Source of the DNA: Auricularia sp. M13
Taxonomy: Eukaryota; Basidiomycota; Agaricomycetes; Auriculariales; Auriculariaceae
Assembly (NCBI GenBank): GCA_037042915.1
Contig: CM073197.1
Location: 1,612,001 to 1,676,000 of the forward strand
Direction: 5' to 3'
Length of the DNA: 64,000 bases
In this document: piece after piece, positions 13,860-27,596 of the stretch
Layout of the letters: each line of letters opens with the position of its first letter
Numbering within the stretch: position 1 is the first letter of the stretch
Position numbers and translations under genes: made by a program
The notes under the pieces: model-generated
What the model was told of the DNA's origin: nothing
The model's database searches: none
Seen by the model: the letters and a program-made list of their open reading frames with translations, nothing else

Positions 13860-13933
13860 GGCCTGCTGGCGCAATTGGTTAGCGCGTCGAGCTAATAACT
13901 CGAAGGCTCTGAGTTCAAGCCTCAGGTGGGCCA
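13860..13933 (+). tRNA. tRNA-Ile, anticodon AAT
   Basis: A 74-nt cloverleaf without intron. The acceptor stem GGCCTGC pairs with GTGGGCC through G-T pairs. The D arm is GCGC/GCGC around AATTGGTTA. The anticodon stem TCGAG/CTCGA holds loop CTAATAA with AAT at positions 34-36. The T arm CTGAG/CTCAG holds TTCAAGC. The discriminator is A and CCA is not encoded. It sits 63 bp upstream of the BET1 start on the opposite strand. Confidence 0.95.
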
Positions 13934-17389: not shown

Positions 17390-18982
17390 TCACCAGCCTT
17401 GAAAAGACACATTCGGTACAATCTCACGCACTTGCCACACCATCTCCTGGTCTGCATTGGAACACCACAACAGCGCAAGTCTCGTAATAGACGCAGCGTC
17501 CAGTGCCGCGCTGCGAGCTCGCGCAAACGTGATGAAATCTCCGAGGGAGAGACCGTCGCAATGTTTGAGCCATATCTCGCGCAGGTTCGGGGCCAGCCAA
17601 GTGCCGCCGCCACCGTCAGCAATCCGCACGGCCAGCGTGGCGAATAGCTGAGAATCTATGCAGGAGTACGCGATCTGAAGGTTGACTAGATGGGGCATAT
17701 TCTTCATAGCCTGCAGAAGGGACAGCACCGCAGGTCCCGTAAGGGTATACGACGCAATGCTGAGAATGGCAATCGACCCTGCGAAGTTTCGTAAAAATGG
17801 CGGCAGCACAGGAACTCCCGAAGGGCCTCCTTCACCCGAGCACACGCAGAGATGCGATAGAGAGGGGAAAGAAACGGCGTCTAGGAAGGGCGAGAGATGA
17901 TGGTGTTGACTGCCGTGAACGAGCACTAACTTCTTCACCGCGAGTTGTAGTGCCTTTACCGGTGGTGAGATCGAGGATAGAGCGTCCATAATGGGGACTG
18001 TGAATCCCCATGAGTCAATCTCCAGCGATTCTAGTCGAGGAAGGGATTGCAGCAACTGCTTGAATGACGCGCAATCTGTATCGTCACGTCGACGCCTCCC
18101 GGAGGAGCGGTGGGAGGTGCGGAATCGTAGAGAATGTAGCGACGGTAACGAGATCTGCACGCATGCTGGACGAAAGCCCTCCAGAATAAGCGTGTGAAGG
18201 TGGGGCATAGTGCCGTGATTGGGAAGGGGGCTGGCTATCGCATTCGCCGCTGGGAAATGGCTACTCGCGCAAAGCGAAAGTTCGTGCAGCCGAGCGCCGG
18301 GTCCAAGCATTTTGGCGCACAGTCCGCGGACAACATCGAAACCGGCCTCGTCAATACCCCAGACAAAGAACGAGCGACAACGCCAGATGTGAGGCTCGAG
18401 CCTTTGCACCAGCGTTGCGAAATCCGCATAGCGGTCTCGCTTGCTGATATCAAGTTTCAGGACAAGGTCCGCGAAGCGAGACCTATCCAAAAAGGTCTGC
18501 ACACGGTAGGGGAGCATCGAGTTGAATGGCCAGGAAGTCTCGAGCCGTCCGATGGGATGGATGTGTCCAATGCATATGTTGGCCCAGAGCGAGGGAGTCG
18601 CTAACGCTACCTCCCGCCACGAGCGGCAGACGAGGGAGATGCGCACGAGTAGATTCTGGTTTTCTCGGGCAGCGATTTCGAAAATGCGAGACAGAAGCTC
18701 TGCGGGCAAGCGCTTGATAGGCGCAGAGGCTTGCAAGGCTCGTTCACGATCATGCAGCAGCCTCTCGGTCACGATGCGTAGAACAGAGAGCTTAGCGTCA
18801 ATGTCGCGCACTCCAGTAGGAAGGGGCGCATCAAGTCTGAGCAGTCTGGTCAGCCAGCGCGCTGACGGGTCTGAAAGCAGCACTGCTACCAACATGCACA
18901 CAACCGGGGTTGGCGATGACGCGCGGGAGTAAGGTTCCCATGTGCCCCAAATGTCTGTTGTGGTCGATGCTAAGATCGACAT
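17390..18982 (-). CDS. F-box protein with leucine-rich C-terminal half
   Basis: A single exon, unusual in this window, encoding up to 530 aa. An F-box lies near residues 88-135: IKRLPAELLSRIFEIAAREN, then SLVCRSWREVALATPSLWANI. Irregular leucine-rich segments follow, typical of the large Agaricomycete F-box families that bring substrates to SCF ubiquitin ligases. The partner is unknown. The first ATG (18982) was taken; an in-frame Met at about residue 30 is an alternative start. Confidence 0.85.
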   Translation of the reverse strand: MSILASTTTDIWGTWEPYSRASSPTPVVCMLVAVLLSDPSARWLTRLLRLDAPLPTGVRDIDAKLSVLRIVTERLLHDRERALQASAPIKRLPAELLSRIFEIAARENQNLLVRISLVCRSWREVALATPSLWANICIGHIHPIGRLETSWPFNSMLPYRVQTFLDRSRFADLVLKLDISKRDRYADFATLVQRLEPHIWRCRSFFVWGIDEAGFDVVRGLCAKMLGPGARLHELSLCASSHFPAANAIASPLPNHGTMPHLHTLILEGFRPACVQISLPSLHSLRFRTSHRSSGRRRRDDTDCASFKQLLQSLPRLESLEIDSWGFTVPIMDALSSISPPVKALQLAVKKLVLVHGSQHHHLSPFLDAVSFPSLSHLCVCSGEGGPSGVPVLPPFLRNFAGSIAILSIASYTLTGPAVLSLLQAMKNMPHLVNLQIAYSCIDSQLFATLAVRIADGGGGTWLAPNLREIWLKHCDGLSLGDFITFARARSAALDAASITRLALLWCSNADQEMVWQVREIVPNVSFQGW

Positions 18983-20179
18983 GGCGCGAGCAGCGACGAG
19001 GGAAATATGGATGTGAAAGCTGGCTCCAACCCTTTAAATGCACCTGGCGAATCCGTTCAAAACATGCACCAGCCTCAAGGCGCGACTCGGACTTCGTTCC
19101 GTGTCACAGCACGTTCTGTTGCCTACTGCAGTCATCACTATCAAGCGTGATTTTAGCTTCTCAATTGATGAATACCTCTGTCGCACGAAACGACTTGCCA
19201 TGATTGGACACAGTAGATGTACGGCGTGTAGAAGCACTTGGAACATGGAGTCCAGGTCACTTCCGCTTGCCTAAGTCCGACGCCGCACTCGTCTCGAGTT
19301 TTCTCCGATCCCACCACTGAGTGGCACCAGGCCAAGACACGTAGCCGCCATTGATTCTGAAAGCCATGCTGGTTCGCCTCGTAATCATGTGACCTGACAC
19401 AGCGCGTCGCGAAATCTCACGGCTCGTTCGACACCGTGTATTGCCAAGTTTCACGTTTGCTGCACTAGTCCCTCAGTACTTGAGCGTTTGCCACGGCCAG
19501 TCTCAATCGCTGGATGGTGCACTTGAAAACTCGGTTCAGTTTGCCCCCAGGCCACGGGAACTGCTACAGACATCGATTGCAGGCGAAGAACTGGCTAGCT
19601 TGTGAACGCCACCAGAAGGAATCCGATTTCGCGGTACTGGAGGGGCATTCTGCCAAGAGAGGCCTTGCACATGCATATCGCGACGTGTGCTCAGAGAACA
19701 ATAACTCTATCGCGGACCACGGCGGTCCGTTCAGGTTGTCGACACCACGATGATTTTGACGCTCAGTGCCCTCTTGCCACGGTCTACGAACAACGTCTGC
19801 TTTTTCTGTGCTCTGCCGTTCGATGACAGCGGTGAATATCGTTGATTGGCACCAGCCGGCAGAACTACTCTCGAATACCTTTGTTCCCAAACAGGCAGTC
19901 CTTGTACTTTCCTCGGTCCTGACCGGTAGCATATCCGCGTGCGAGGGCCGTGGGACCACTCACCGTGCAAACATGGCAACTGTAGCAGATGTTATTGTTC
20001 TCGATTCGGCGATGCCACTGTACAAGACCTCGGCTGCCCTGATGAAGCGTGGTTGACCATGCGTCGCGACCACTCATTCTACATATAAAAGGCCGCAGCC
20101 ATCCCGCAGCCCCTTCGTGCTCCATCCCAGGATACCTCGTTTTCGACTTCGATTTACCACCCCTTCGATTACTCAAGAC
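18983..20179. other. 1.2-kb intergenic region, promoter of the repeat-peptide gene at its right end
   Basis: No gene was recognised on either strand. Short ORFs here lack domains and codon patterns like their neighbours. The right end holds the TATA box of the peptide precursor; the left end should drive the F-box gene. Confidence 0.6.
20084..20090 (+). promoter_or_regulatory. TATA box of the repeat-peptide precursor
   Basis: TATAAAA lies 90 bp upstream of the ATG, followed by a CT-rich leader up to CAAGACATG. A strong core promoter fits a highly expressed secreted product. Confidence 0.65.
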
Positions 20180-21143
20180 ATGCTCGCCATCGTCCCCATC
20201 GTCATTGCCTGCATTGCCGCGTCCGTCGCCGGTATGTCCGAACACTTCGAGATGAACCTGGTGCTCACATCCCGCCTCAGCACCCATTGCGGCCGATGAG
20301 ACTAACGTAGCCCGGGAACCCACGGCGGATCCCGCCGCTCAAATCCCCGCTGTTGAGCTCGCCGACGACGACCTCGTGAGTATTGAACATGGTCCACTTG
20401 AAACTTCAGCTCATAATGGTCTTCAGGTCAAGCGTACGGTCGTCAAGTACACCAAGTTCATCAAGCGCGAGCCAGAGCCAGAGCCAGAGCCGATTCGCTA
20501 CTCAGCGTACAAGCGCGAGCCTGCCCCGATCCGCTACTCCGCGTACAAGCGCGAGCCGGAGGCCAGCCCCGAGCCTGGCATTATGCGGTACTCTGCGTAC
20601 AAGCGCGAGCCGGAGCCCGAGCCCATTCGTTACTCCGCCTACAAGCGTGAGCCAGAGCCTGAGCCAGAGCCCGAGCCTCTTCGCTACTCGGCGTACAAGC
20701 GCGAACCCGAGCCCGCGCCCATTCGCTACTCTGCGTACAAGCGCGAGCCAGAGGCCAGCCCGGAGCCTGGCATCATGCGGTATTCTGCTTACAAGCGCGG
20801 GCCCGAACCCGAGCCTGCGCCTGAGCCGATCCGCTACTCCGCGTACAAGCGCGAGCCCGAAGCCGCACCCGAGCCCGTACGCTACTCCGCCTACAAGCGT
20901 GACCCCGAGCCCGTGCCCGAGCCTCTCCGCTATTCCGCCTACAAGCGCGAGCCTGAGGCCAGCCCCGAGCCCGGCATCATGCGGTACTCCGCCTACAAGC
21001 GGGACCCTGAAGCCAACGCAGAGCCTGGGATCATGCGCTACTCCGCCTACAAGCGTGAGCCGGAAGCCGCACCCGAGCCTCTGCGGTACTCTGCCTACAA
21101 GCGCGATCCCGAGCCCGAGCCTTTGCGTTACTCCGCCTACTAG
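20180..21143 (+). CDS. secreted Kex2-processed repeat-peptide precursor (alpha-factor-like layout, RYSAY peptides)
   Basis: Exons 20180-20231, 20281-20375, 20427-21143, 287 aa. Residues 1-18 are a signal peptide (MLAIVPIVIACIAASVAA). An acidic pro-region follows, ending DDDLVKR, then TVVKYTKFIKR. The rest is 14 units ending in RYSAY, 13 of them followed by Lys-Arg and the last by the stop codon. Between KR and the core, every unit has two to five dipeptides whose second residue is Pro or Ala (EP, EA, AP, SP, DP, GP, VP, NA). By analogy with yeast alpha-factor, Kex2 would cut after KR and a Ste13-type dipeptidyl aminopeptidase would trim the dipeptides. That would leave IRYSAY (5), LRYSAY (4), VRYSAY (1) and GIMRYSAY (4). 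All repeats are in one exon. No DUF3328/UstY oxidase was seen nearby, so a cyclised dikaritin is possible but unsupported here. Receptor and role are unknown. Confidence 0.9.
20469..21140 (+). repeat. in-frame tandem repeat, 14 units of 10-16 codons plus Lys-Arg
   Basis: Units differ in spacer length but share a near-identical core encoding CGCTACTCCGCCTACAAGCG. Two unit classes, (I/L/V)RYSAY and GIMRYSAY, are interspersed in the order I I GIM I L I GIM I V L GIM GIM L L. This suggests block duplication (units 2-3 and 6-7 are similar pairs). Confidence 0.95.
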
Positions 21144-21821
21144 GGTGAGTATGGGATGTGATTCATGGATTTATATGCAGATGAACTCACGCTTGTTCCA
21201 GGTCCTCGCGAACCCGTCCGCGAGAAGGATGTGACTATTGACTAGTCCCATTTCCCCTTACTCCACCGGCTTCCTTTCTAATCCACGCTCCTTGATGTCC
21301 TGGTCTTTATTCAATATTTCTCTCTCGTCTCGCTGCTCTTGACCGTCGCCTCTCTCTATCTCTCACGCTCTCTTTTCCCGTCTCTCGTTTAGTTTGCATA
21401 CGTTACTGTGGATGACTGCATGTCCAAGCAGTAGTCACACCACATTGTTCTCCGCGCTCTTGACTTCTCATTGACGCATGGGCAGACCTCCTTCCTCGCT
21501 GACCTTGTGGTTCGCCAGATGGGGTCGGTCAGCCTCGGCGACGAGCTCATTGCCGCGGTTCTCCTATTTTTGTTTTGTCTCCAGTTTCGCTTGTGTCACT
21601 GTATCTTTGGATTCTTGTGTTCTTGTCTCGATAGTGCTTCGAATATAGAACTCGCTTGTTTGTTCGGATATTGTTGACTTAGGCAAGAGCCGTCTATGAG
21701 TCATGCCGTCAGCAAAGCATCGAAATACTCGAATGCCGTTCAATCTCTCTCAAGAGGGAAACGTAAACGTGGGCGCCTTCTGCTCATAGTCTATGTTGGG
21801 TAAAATACATTAGGGCTCGAA
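21144..21821. other. 3' region of the peptide gene; possible 3'-UTR intron; pyrimidine tract
   Basis: Directly after the stop lies GGTGAGTATGG, with an AG acceptor at 21202 (TTGTTCCAG), so a 3'-UTR intron is likely. A long C/T-rich stretch covers about 21255-21395. No gene recognised beyond this. Confidence 0.5.
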
Positions 21822-25071: not shown

Positions 25072-25481
25072 ATGGTGCGGACGACGGCCTGGCAGGCGCC
25101 GCGTGGGCTGACGCTGCCGTAGACTCTCGCCGTTGACCTCCTCAACCCGTCCGCCGCGCACGAGAAGAAGTCGCACAAGCTCAAGCGGCTCGTGCAGTCG
25201 CCCAACTCGTTCTTCATGGACGTCAAGTGCTCTGGTGCGTGCTCACGGCCGCTCTCAGCTGGCTCCCAGGTGCTGACGGCGCCGCCAGGCTGCTTCACCA
25301 TCACGACCGTCTTCTCGCATGCGCAGACGGTCGTCATCTGTGCGTCGTGCACGCAGGTCCTGTGCCAGCCCACCGGCGGCAAGGCTCGTCTGACGGAGGG
25401 TCAGTGCGCTTCCTACGCGTCTATCTGTGCTGGCATGCTGAATGTGCGCTTCCAGGCTGCTCGTACCGTCGCAAGGCATAA
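25072..25481 (+). CDS. RPS27: 40S ribosomal protein S27 (eS27)
   Basis: Exons 25072-25074, 25123-25234, 25289-25399, 25456-25481, 83 aa. The first coding exon is the ATG alone, a common layout in ribosomal protein genes. The protein reads [19 protein letters not shown], then [34 protein letters not shown] and ends GCSYRRKA. The zinc finger CSGC...CASC of eS27 is complete. It is part of the small-subunit body. Confidence 0.97.
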
Positions 25482-26630
25482 GCGAGATCTCGGGTTTCCT
25501 CATGCTCTTGTGTTACTCCGGTTTTACTGCACTATGTTCTCACACGTCGCAAAATTGAAGCATCTTGGCCCGCCGCTGTCCCCCGCGTGTATCCCTCGTA
25601 TGCCATAATGTCATGCAACGGGTGCCTGCCCCGCCCACCCTATACAGTTTCCTTTTGCTCTCCACCTCAACTGTGGCGATTTCATTTGCTCTCCATCTCA
25701 ACTGTGGCGGCTTAGCTCCCATCCATGCTGAGGCGATTTAAAGCTGCACAGTGCTTGGCACATGCATCAATGACACGCAATGCTCATACCGCTCAGGCTT
25801 CTGACCGCGCGCTGTACAGGGAGCCACATCGTCAACCTGCACAGCAGCAATTGTGACCTGCCAGCGCCGTAAGAACAACCATGCTGTCAGTTCCAAATAC
25901 ATGCGTGCTGACATGCGCCATGATTAGATGCCCAGTGTTCGTACCTGCCGGACACAATGGCACGATTGTACTGCGTTTCTATTCGGAAGCAACCAGAAAA
26001 ACAATAGGGCGCACGCCGGCGGTCCGGATTGACGGACGCCTCCGGTTTGGTTGTTCTTTCGGGTGCTCATGTGAAGAACAATGGCCGGTGCACAATGGGC
26101 TCGGCCCCACATGGGCGCTTCGCCTCGGCTGGAGAAGATTATAAGAAGAGCATGCTAGGCGTCGAATTACCCCATCTCCTCTCAGAGGAACAGCGACCCT
26201 CGTTGACCAGCTCTCGACCTGCCTGTCTCGTGTCTCTAATTCATTCTCGTGCGTCTCATTCGCCCTTCCCAGCTTGTTGCAACCTTGACTGACTGGTCTC
26301 CTGTTGTGTTCATAGTCTCTGCATCAGGTTAGTCTGACATCCTCGCAATGCAGGGCTTCATAGACTGACATTGCGCCCTTGCAGTCCTTCATTTCTGACG
26401 TTCTCGTGTCGCCTCCTCACGAACTCGATTGCTCCACGTCGCCCGACACAAGTCGTCGCCGGATTCTCAGCCTAGCCTGAGAAACAGTTTCAGTACAACA
26501 CCTCCGCATTCAACGTTCTCTTGTCGCCGGGCGACTCGACTCATAAGCAAACGACTTCACGAGCACTATCAGAATCTCGCCTCCGTCGCATATATCACCT
26601 TCGCTTCTTACGCATTAACGCTCAACACCA
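25482..26630. other. 1.15-kb intergenic region with a short direct repeat and probable 5' leader of the BTG gene
   Basis: A 26-bp direct repeat with two differences (TTTGCTCTCCACCTCAACTG type) occurs at 25653-25678 and 25684-25709. From about 26280 on the sequence is C/T rich with GT...AG pairs (for example 26327-26353) and looks like a spliced 5' leader. No gene recognised. Confidence 0.5.
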
Positions 26631-27596
26631 ATGGCTCACTTCACTCTCACCATCGCGCTCTCGCATCTCATCGCATTCCTGACCAGCCCGCTTGCCAAGT
26701 CCGTCGCCAGCCAGACCGTAGAGCGTCTCCGCGCCAGCCTGGAGGCGAACCTCGTCAAGGAGTACGAGAACAACTGGTACCCGGCCGAGCCCCAACGTGG
26801 CTCTGAAGCGCGCGCCCTTTCGCTTTCGCCCAACCGTCTTCCTCCGCGCCCGCTGCTCGCATCCGCATTCGCTGCCCGCCTTCCCTGGTCGCAGTGGATC
26901 CAGGCCCTGGGCGGCAAGGAATTCGACCTCTTCGTTGATCCCGGGTCGGTCTCCGTTCGCAAGGCTGGCTCGCTCCAGCACCACGTCATCTGGGCTGCCT
27001 CCGCGCAAGCTCCTCGCATCGTTCGCCCGCTCGCTGACTCCGACATTGACGATGTTCTCAAGCTCATCAACAACCGCGACGTCAACCCGTCCTGGATGTC
27101 TCCGCTCCTGCACCAGTTCCCGAAGGTTCCGCAGGCATCGAAGGCCAGGGCCAACGCCCCCACTCTTCGCGTTGACGCCGCCTTCCTCCAGAGCCGCTGC
27201 GCCTCCCGCCTGTCCAACATATCCGATGCTGACAGCGAAGGATCGCTCTGCGGCCCGCCCTCGCTCGTTGAGAGCGACTCTCTCTCCTCGGTCTCGTCCC
27301 TCGACACCGACATGTCTCGCTCGCGCTCGACCGCCTCTACTTCCAGCGGCGTCTACGTCCCGCCGGCGCGCCGTGGTCACGGTCTGAGCTCGCGCTTCTC
27401 GTCCTCTTCGTCTTCATCTGACGAGAGCGAGAGCTCCTTCCGCTCCTCGCCCCGCTCCGTCAAGGACCAGCGCGTGCTGGTGGACACGACCAAGGTCGAC
27501 CCCACCATCTACGACGCCGGCAAGACTGCCGTCCTCACTGGCGGCGTCATGCTCGGCATGGGCGCCCCCGCCAAGAGGCGCCCTCTCCTCTGCTAA
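26631..27596 (+). CDS. BTG/Tob anti-proliferation domain protein
   Basis: A single exon of 321 aa. Residues 1-115 form a BTG domain: HLIAFLTSPLAKS, then LRASLEANLVKEYENNWYP, the NNWYPAEPQRGS box, LPWSQWIQALGGKEFDLFVD and PGSVSVRKA. In animals BTG/Tob proteins bridge the CCR4-NOT deadenylase to target mRNAs. The C-terminal 200 residues are Ser/Arg rich with PPARRGHG and end in MGAPAKRRPLLC. Codon use is strongly C-ending, suggesting high expression. The start is the first ATG after a long pyrimidine-rich leader. Confidence 0.85.
   Translation: MAHFTLTIALSHLIAFLTSPLAKSVASQTVERLRASLEANLVKEYENNWYPAEPQRGSEARALSLSPNRLPPRPLLASAFAARLPWSQWIQALGGKEFDLFVDPGSVSVRKAGSLQHHVIWAASAQAPRIVRPLADSDIDDVLKLINNRDVNPSWMSPLLHQFPKVPQASKARANAPTLRVDAAFLQSRCASRLSNISDADSEGSLCGPPSLVESDSLSSVSSLDTDMSRSRSTASTSSGVYVPPARRGHGLSSRFSSSSSSSDESESSFRSSPRSVKDQRVLVDTTKVDPTIYDAGKTAVLTGGVMLGMGAPAKRRPLLC

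What the first reader, a model, noticed from the sequence alone, without database searches (positions are those of the whole stretch)
20180..21143. Alpha-factor-like secreted peptide precursor with 14 RYSAY units in a basidiomycete
The protein has a signal peptide, an acidic pro-region, then 14 units bounded by Lys-Arg. In all 14 units the spacer between KR and the core consists only of dipeptides ending in Pro or Ala (two to five per unit), which are Ste13/DPP-type substrates. The same design is used for yeast alpha-factor (KR-EAEA-peptide). Predicted end products are IRYSAY, LRYSAY, VRYSAY and GIMRYSAY. Known basidiomycete mating pheromones are short farnesylated CaaX peptides, so this would be a different class: a non-lipidated secreted signal, repellent or defence peptide, or a RiPP core with two tyrosines. 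The family identity is not known to me.
Basis: partly seen in the sequence, partly recalled or inferred. Interest (0 to 1): 0.92.

Follow-up and report, generated by a model that had tools for sequence, protein, structure and literature searches.

The report
Fungal multi-copy secreted peptide precursor
A fungal gene encodes one probably secreted protein carrying 14 copies of a tiny tyrosine-rich peptide, laid out to be cut free by the kind of enzymes that release yeast mating factor; this type of precursor is already known from mushrooms, and what this peptide does is unknown.

Summary
A three-exon gene (20180-21143, +) reads as 287 aa: signal-like hydrophobic start, acidic pro-region, then 14 units KR-(X-P/X-A)2-5-core, with cores IRYSAY x5, LRYSAY x4, VRYSAY x1, GIMRYSAY x4. 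All 53 spacer dipeptides end in Pro (46) or Ala (7). All 192 pairwise base differences among the 14 RYSAY codon sets are at third positions: the peptide is constant while its DNA has drifted. The last unit stops at the core Tyr.

The alpha-factor-like layout holds, but the class is known: Kex2-processed repeat proteins (KEPs) with a STE13 signature were reported in Basidiomycota in 2019, and peptides of such KEPs were detected in Pleurotus in 2022 (PMC6339444, PMC9769878). A Tyr-crosslinked RiPP has no support nearby: no DUF3328/UstY was found in the part of the window scanned. Linear hexa- and octapeptides are the likely products; self-signal or action on other organisms stays open.

The RYSAY core was not seen in the held papers' text; their figures and supplements could not be read. 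Conservation and host identity are untested. New member of a known kind; moderate interest.

The parts
20084..20090 (+). TATAAAA, TATA-like box about 90 bp before the ATG
   Evidence: sequence; consensus match only
20180..20231 (+). exon 1: hydrophobic signal-like peptide MLAIVPIVIACIAASVA, likely cut near residue 17/18
   Evidence: mean Kyte-Doolittle 2.78 over residues 2-16, the maximum of the protein; no signal-peptide predictor was available
20232..20280 (+). intron 1 (49 nt, GTATGT...CTCAG)
   Evidence: consensus sites only, no transcript
20281..20375 (+). exon 2: most of the acidic pro-region APIAADETNVAREPTADPAAQIPAVELADDDLV (8 acidic, 1 basic residues)
20376..20426 (+). intron 2 (51 nt, GTGAGT...TTCAG)
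   Evidence: consensus sites only, no transcript
20427..21143 (+). exon 3: last pro-region residue, first KR, fragment TVVKYTKFI, repeat array, stop codon
20430..20462 (+). first KR site and fragment TVVKYTKFI; possible diverged 15th core (VKYTKF against IRYSAY)
20463..21140 (+). 14 units KR-(X-P/X-A)2-5-[I/L/V/GIM]RYSAY; the last ends at the stop
   Evidence: tandem repeats also found by TRF
21145..21201 (+). putative 57-nt intron in the 3' UTR, one base after the stop codon (GTGAGT...TTCCAG)
   Evidence: consensus sites only, no transcript

Best explanation
It is a Kex2-processed repeat protein (KEP) with a STE13 signature. The signal peptide takes it into the secretory pathway; Kex2 cuts after each KR; Kex1 removes the C-terminal KR to leave Tyr; a Ste13-like dipeptidyl aminopeptidase strips X-P and X-A dipeptides and halts at I/L/V-R or G-I. 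One precursor then gives up to ten hexapeptides ([I/L/V]RYSAY) and four octapeptides (GIMRYSAY), linear and unmodified, released outside the cell. For function I lean slightly to a secreted signal. Shown here: the anatomy and the constancy of the core. Inferred: every processing step, secretion and function. The confidence given is for the processing; for the signal role alone it is about 0.4.
For: Anatomy. 53 of 53 spacer dipeptides are X-P or X-A and none begins with Pro (that DPP-type enzymes need the latter is recalled). The last unit ends at the stop right after core Tyr, so Tyr is probably the intended mature C terminus. 192 of 192 pairwise base differences in the RYSAY codons are at third positions, none changes a residue (pS 0.56, pN 0 over 91 pairs, which are not independent). 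Precedent: Pichia expressing C. cinerea KEP 490115 removed X-A/X-P after RR; MSGVAADW, SGVAADW and LSGVAADW from a KEP with STE13 motifs were found in P. ostreatus; STE13 homologues are reported in many basidiomycetes. No DUF3328 gene seen nearby.
Against: No transcript, peptide or homologue was available. KEX2, KEX1 and STE13 of this organism could not be checked (no genome held). The first fragment, TVVKYTKFI, has no STE13 signature. Third-position-only differences show constraint on the peptide, not signalling; recent exchange between units could also help keep them alike. Knockouts of 6 C. cinerea KEPs had no visible phenotype, which weighs against an essential self-signal in that species.
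Confidence: 0.78

Rival explanations
1. Same processing, but the linear peptides act on other organisms (defence, competition, host interaction) rather than on the producer. This is a rival on function only, so its odds overlap with those of the main explanation.
For: Vogt et al. favour this for C. cinerea KEPs, since knockouts of 6 had no phenotype in axenic culture. Characterised KEP peptides include virulence factors and mutualism modulators as well as mating factors.
Against: Synthetic KEP peptides tested there had no antibacterial activity. The core is a short peptide with one Arg and no Cys, the same in 14 copies, which suits a specific receptor at least as well.
Confidence: 0.4
2. A dikaritin-like RiPP: the two tyrosines of RYSAY are crosslinked by UstY (DUF3328) oxidases after release.
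For: Ustiloxins, asperipin-2a and phomopsins are cyclised through Tyr. [quoted passage not shown]
Against: No DUF3328 hit at E up to 0.01 in 204 of 222 ORFs of at least 110 aa and only six isolated HxxHC motifs in six frames. Only 103 of 1680 Basidiomycota KEPs have DUF3328 near. Short exons under 110 aa and unlinked enzymes were not excluded.
Confidence: 0.07
3. A surface or structural protein: either intact EP-rich cell-wall protein, or Rep1-like peptides that coat hyphae.
For: Low-complexity EP repeats; the only Pfam hit at E up to 1 is PARP, far below its cut-off (20.3 against 100 bits). Rep1 is a Kex2-processed repeat protein whose peptides attach to hyphae and form amyloid-like fibrils.
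Against: 15 KR sites and strict X-P/X-A periodicity are not needed by a wall protein; no hydrophobic C-terminal tail for a GPI anchor (the last 20 residues end in RYSAY; highest 15-residue hydropathy beyond residue 21 is 0.57); Rep1 lacks the STE13 signature.
Confidence: 0.12
4. Further single-Arg cutting (IR/YSAY) makes the tetrapeptide YSAY the real product.
For: Arg is invariant before YSAY in all 14 units; products that seem to come from cuts after single Arg were seen for KEPs in Pichia.
Against: A single-Arg cut would make the I/L/V/M before Arg unnecessary, yet it is present in 14 of 14 units; invariant Arg is as well explained by a role in the peptide.
Confidence: 0.1

Closest known systems
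STE13-signature KEPs of Agaricomycetes: Pleurotus ostreatus KEP 1091723 / P. eryngii 1439342 (MSGVAADW, SGVAADW, LSGVAADW) and Coprinopsis KEP 490115 (QYKAPSW, QMRPPSW)
   Same: Repeated short cores, dibasic Kex2 sites, X-P/X-A spacers, a variable front residue before a constant core, aromatic C-terminal residue (papers; this gene). Signal peptide too, except that none is annotated in the P. eryngii protein, which the authors put down to misannotation.
   Different: The STE13-type cores read about there end in Trp; this one ends in Tyr (RYSAY). No shared core sequence. The full precursors are not held and could not be aligned.
Ascomycete alpha-pheromone precursors (yeast MF-alpha)
   Same: Signal peptide, pro-region, KR, X-A/X-P spacer, peptide; last repeat ending at the stop (yeast detail recalled)
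   Different: No MF_alpha Pfam hit. Basidiomycete mating pheromones are a-type and prenylated, so a mating role is not expected.
KEP type G-1/P-2 (#7) of Umemura 2020
   Same: Tyr-rich, 49 genera (that nearly all are Agaricomycetes is recalled), about one per genome, 0 of 64 near DUF3328
   Different: Its repeat is shown only in a figure that is not held, so identity with RYSAY is untested.
Dikaritin precursors (ustiloxin, phomopsin, asperipin-2a)
   Same: Signal peptide and dibasic-separated repeats with Tyr in the core
   Different: STE13 signature is reported absent in the Ascomycota precursors of toxic cyclic peptides; dikaritin genes have DUF3328 partners, not seen here.
Ustilago maydis Rep1
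   Same: Kex2-processed repeat protein of a basidiomycete
   Different: No STE13 signature; peptides attach to hyphae.

Membership tests
Kex2-processed repeat protein (KEP) | N-terminal signal peptide | tested here: met
   Strong hydrophobic segment at residues 2-16; by hydropathy only, no signal-peptide predictor
Kex2-processed repeat protein (KEP) | Repeated similar peptides flanked by KR/RR/KK | tested here: met
   15 KR, 14 core units
KEP with STE13 signature | X-P or X-A dipeptides right after the dibasic site | tested here: met
   53 of 53 spacer dipeptides in 14 of 14 core units; the first KR-bounded fragment, TVVKYTKFI, has none
KEP with STE13 signature | Peptides released in vivo by Kex2, Kex1 and Ste13 | not testable with these tools
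   needs peptidomics; no genome held to look for the proteases
Ascomycete alpha-type mating pheromone | Core homologous to known alpha-pheromones | tested here: inconclusive
   No MF_alpha Pfam hit at E up to 1; filamentous-type pheromones were not compared
Ascomycete alpha-type mating pheromone | Ste2-type receptor and a mating role | not testable with these tools
   no receptor family in the ORFs scanned, but the rest of the genome is not held
Dikaritin RiPP | DUF3328 (UstY) gene close by | tested here: not met
   None at E up to 0.01 in 204 of 222 ORFs of at least 110 aa (recounted); 6 isolated HxxHC motifs in six frames, none paired; shorter exons not scanned by profile
Dikaritin RiPP | Crosslinked Tyr in the product | not testable with these tools
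   needs mass spectrometry
KEP type G-1/P-2 of Umemura 2020 | Repeat matches the type's HMM profile | not testable with these tools
   profile only in a figure and supplement, not held
Basidiomycete a-type mating pheromone | Short precursor ending in CaaX (motif recalled) | tested here: not met
   287 aa, ends RYSAY, its single Cys is residue 11 in the signal peptide

The most novel reading that the evidence does not exclude
[I/L/V]RYSAY is a non-lipidated peptide hormone of a basidiomycete, made like yeast alpha-factor but sensed by a receptor outside the known Ste3 mating system, and it belongs to the widespread Tyr-rich KEP type G-1/P-2, kept in about one copy per genome. That would make it a general mushroom signal.
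Probability: 0.15. Interest if true: 0.8.

Novelty: new member of a known kind. Interest (0 to 1): 0.36.

Why it matters
Basidiomycetes do not use alpha-type mating pheromones, yet some encode alpha-factor-like precursors, and the papers seen here give no function or receptor for them. This gene is a clean case: 14 copies, a core held constant through synonymous drift, and only four predicted products (three exact masses, since IRYSAY and LRYSAY weigh the same), so peptide detection, synthetic-peptide assays and a search for the receptor are straightforward.

Tried and rejected
Homologues: an exact degenerate DNA pattern for RYSAYKR followed by D or E (CGN Arg and TCN Ser codons only) gave 0 stretches in viral contigs and 7 single matches in records titled as bacterial genomes, which I take as chance and did not read further. 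tblastn in plasmids gave 2 records at 29.7% and 32.1% identity, which I take as compositional. PDB: 0 matches at E up to 1. Pfam: only PARP below its cut-off, rejected as compositional.

Coding-potential gene finding for the whole window was too weakly trained to use; I scanned ORFs instead. The bacterial promoter/terminator scan found nothing and is not suited to a fungus. Widening the array search to KR, RR or KK returned several dozen Arg-rich stretches, mostly RR in shadow frames, so it cannot tell whether another KEP lies in the window; with KR alone only this array appears.

Literature: RYSAY inside words in 73 papers, 15 listed, none of the 15 titles is about fungal peptides; the other 58 were not seen. 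YSAYK, SAYKRE, IRYSAY, LRYSAY or MRYSAY gave 1 paper, on bacterial peptides by its title (VRYSAY was not searched on its own). KR-flanked strings gave 14, none about fungal peptides by title. KEP plus STE13 gave three papers, the ones read in part. Three wider searches gave listings only, apart from those three papers. Figures are not held and supplements could not be read, so RYSAY may be printed there.

Considered and rejected: chance or low-complexity artefact (third-position-only differences and strict dipeptide phase); amidated peptide (no Gly before KR); CaaX pheromone.

Full report
What is there. The finding is correct in its facts. The sequence at 20180-21143 on the + strand reads as a three-exon gene, exons 20180-20231, 20281-20375 and 20427-21143. 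38 of the splice combinations tried keep the frame and the array; the one used has the best consensus sites, judged by eye. The protein has 287 residues: signal-like MLAIVPIVIACIAASVA, acidic pro-region, KR, TVVKYTKFI, then 14 units. No signal-peptide predictor was available; the statement rests on hydropathy (2.78 over residues 2-16, the highest in the protein).

The array. Each of 14 units is KR, then 2 to 5 dipeptides, then a core. Spacer lengths are 8, 4, 8, 6, 10, 6, 8, 10, 8, 8, 8, 8, 8 and 6 residues. 46 of 53 dipeptides are X-P and 7 of 53 X-A; the first residue is E in 39 of 53 and never P. Cores are IRYSAY (5), LRYSAY (4), VRYSAY (1) and GIMRYSAY (4). The GIM units are numbers 3, 7, 11 and 12, and TRF finds a higher-order period of 204 bp among others, so blocks of about four units may have been duplicated.

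More than chance. In the five codons of RYSAY, the 91 pairs of units differ at 192 bases, all at third positions, none changing a residue (pS 0.56, pN 0). The pairs share history, so this is not 192 events, but it suggests an old array whose peptide is held constant. The spacer phase, given each spacer's own composition, has log10 P of about -21.

A possible fifteenth core. The first KR-bounded fragment contains VKYTKF, which resembles IRYSAY mostly by conservative changes: BLOSUM62 16 against the best of four core forms, reached by 204 of 20,000 shuffles of the fragment and by 0 of 2,643 nine-mers from 7 long ORFs of the window. I noticed it before testing it, so this is a suggestion only.

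Surroundings. None is a known peptide-tailoring family. DUF3328 was not hit, and the HxxHC motif (recalled as the UstY signature, usually paired) occurs six times in six frames, no two close together on one strand. Exons shorter than 110 aa were not profile-scanned. No other array of four or more KR sites was found in unspliced six-frame reading; RR/KK arrays could not be judged.

Relatives. No fungal genome collection is on hand, and no genome is held for this window. Searches of viral, bacterial/archaeal, plasmid and PDB collections gave nothing meaningful.

Comparison with what is known. Le Marquer et al. 2019 (PMC6339444; passages, sections 10 and 15 seen) named KEPs and reported STE13-signature KEPs in Basidiomycota, speculating on hormone roles. 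Umemura 2020 (PMC7329392; passages and section 6) counted 7,878 KEPs, 1,680 in Basidiomycota, 103 of these near DUF3328, and a Tyr-rich type in 49 genera with 0 of 64 near DUF3328. Vogt et al. 2022 (PMC9769878; abstract, sections 3 and 10, parts 1 and 2 of 3 of section 4) detected products of STE13-type KEPs in Pleurotus and after Pichia expression, and found no phenotype for 6 kep knockouts. The gene here meets the sequence criteria of that class. Its core, ending in Tyr rather than Trp, was not seen in the held papers; one search listed only 15 of 73 matching papers, and neither figures nor supplements could be searched.

How it most likely works. Secretion, Kex2 cutting after KR, Kex1 trimming to Tyr, and Ste13-like stripping of X-P/X-A dipeptides, to release up to 14 linear core peptides per precursor. 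The last unit ending at the stop directly after Tyr agrees with Tyr as the mature end. All processing steps are inferred from anatomy and precedent. For function I lean slightly to a signal, but an action on other organisms is about as likely, given the absence of knockout phenotypes in C. cinerea.

Verdict. Observation confirmed; interpretation partly supported; new member of a known kind. It deserves follow-up as a clean example of an open question, not as a new class.

Noticed in passing
21145-21201 (+): Putative 57-nt intron starting one base after the stop codon. After splicing, the sequence beyond the stop reads GPREPVREKDVTID and then a second stop, perhaps the remains of a former C-terminal tail.
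   Followed up: partly
20430-20462 (+): KR-bounded fragment TVVKYTKFI without X-P/X-A spacer, containing a possible diverged core VKYTKF.
   Followed up: partly
20463-21140 (+): Higher-order period of about 204 bp; GIM cores at units 3, 7, 11 and 12, suggesting duplication of four-unit blocks.
   Followed up: partly
20502-21170 (-): A 222-codon open frame antisense to the array, most likely a by-product of its codon make-up.
   Followed up: no
17393-19033 (-): F-box-like protein (547-aa ORF, E 2.2e-10), the nearest recognised gene upstream, on the opposite strand.
   Followed up: no
26619-27593 (+): BTG-family protein (E 1.9e-17), close to a ribosomal S27e motif in the ORF at 25123-25605.
   Followed up: no
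13860-13933 (+): tRNA-Ile (AAT) gene.
   Followed up: no
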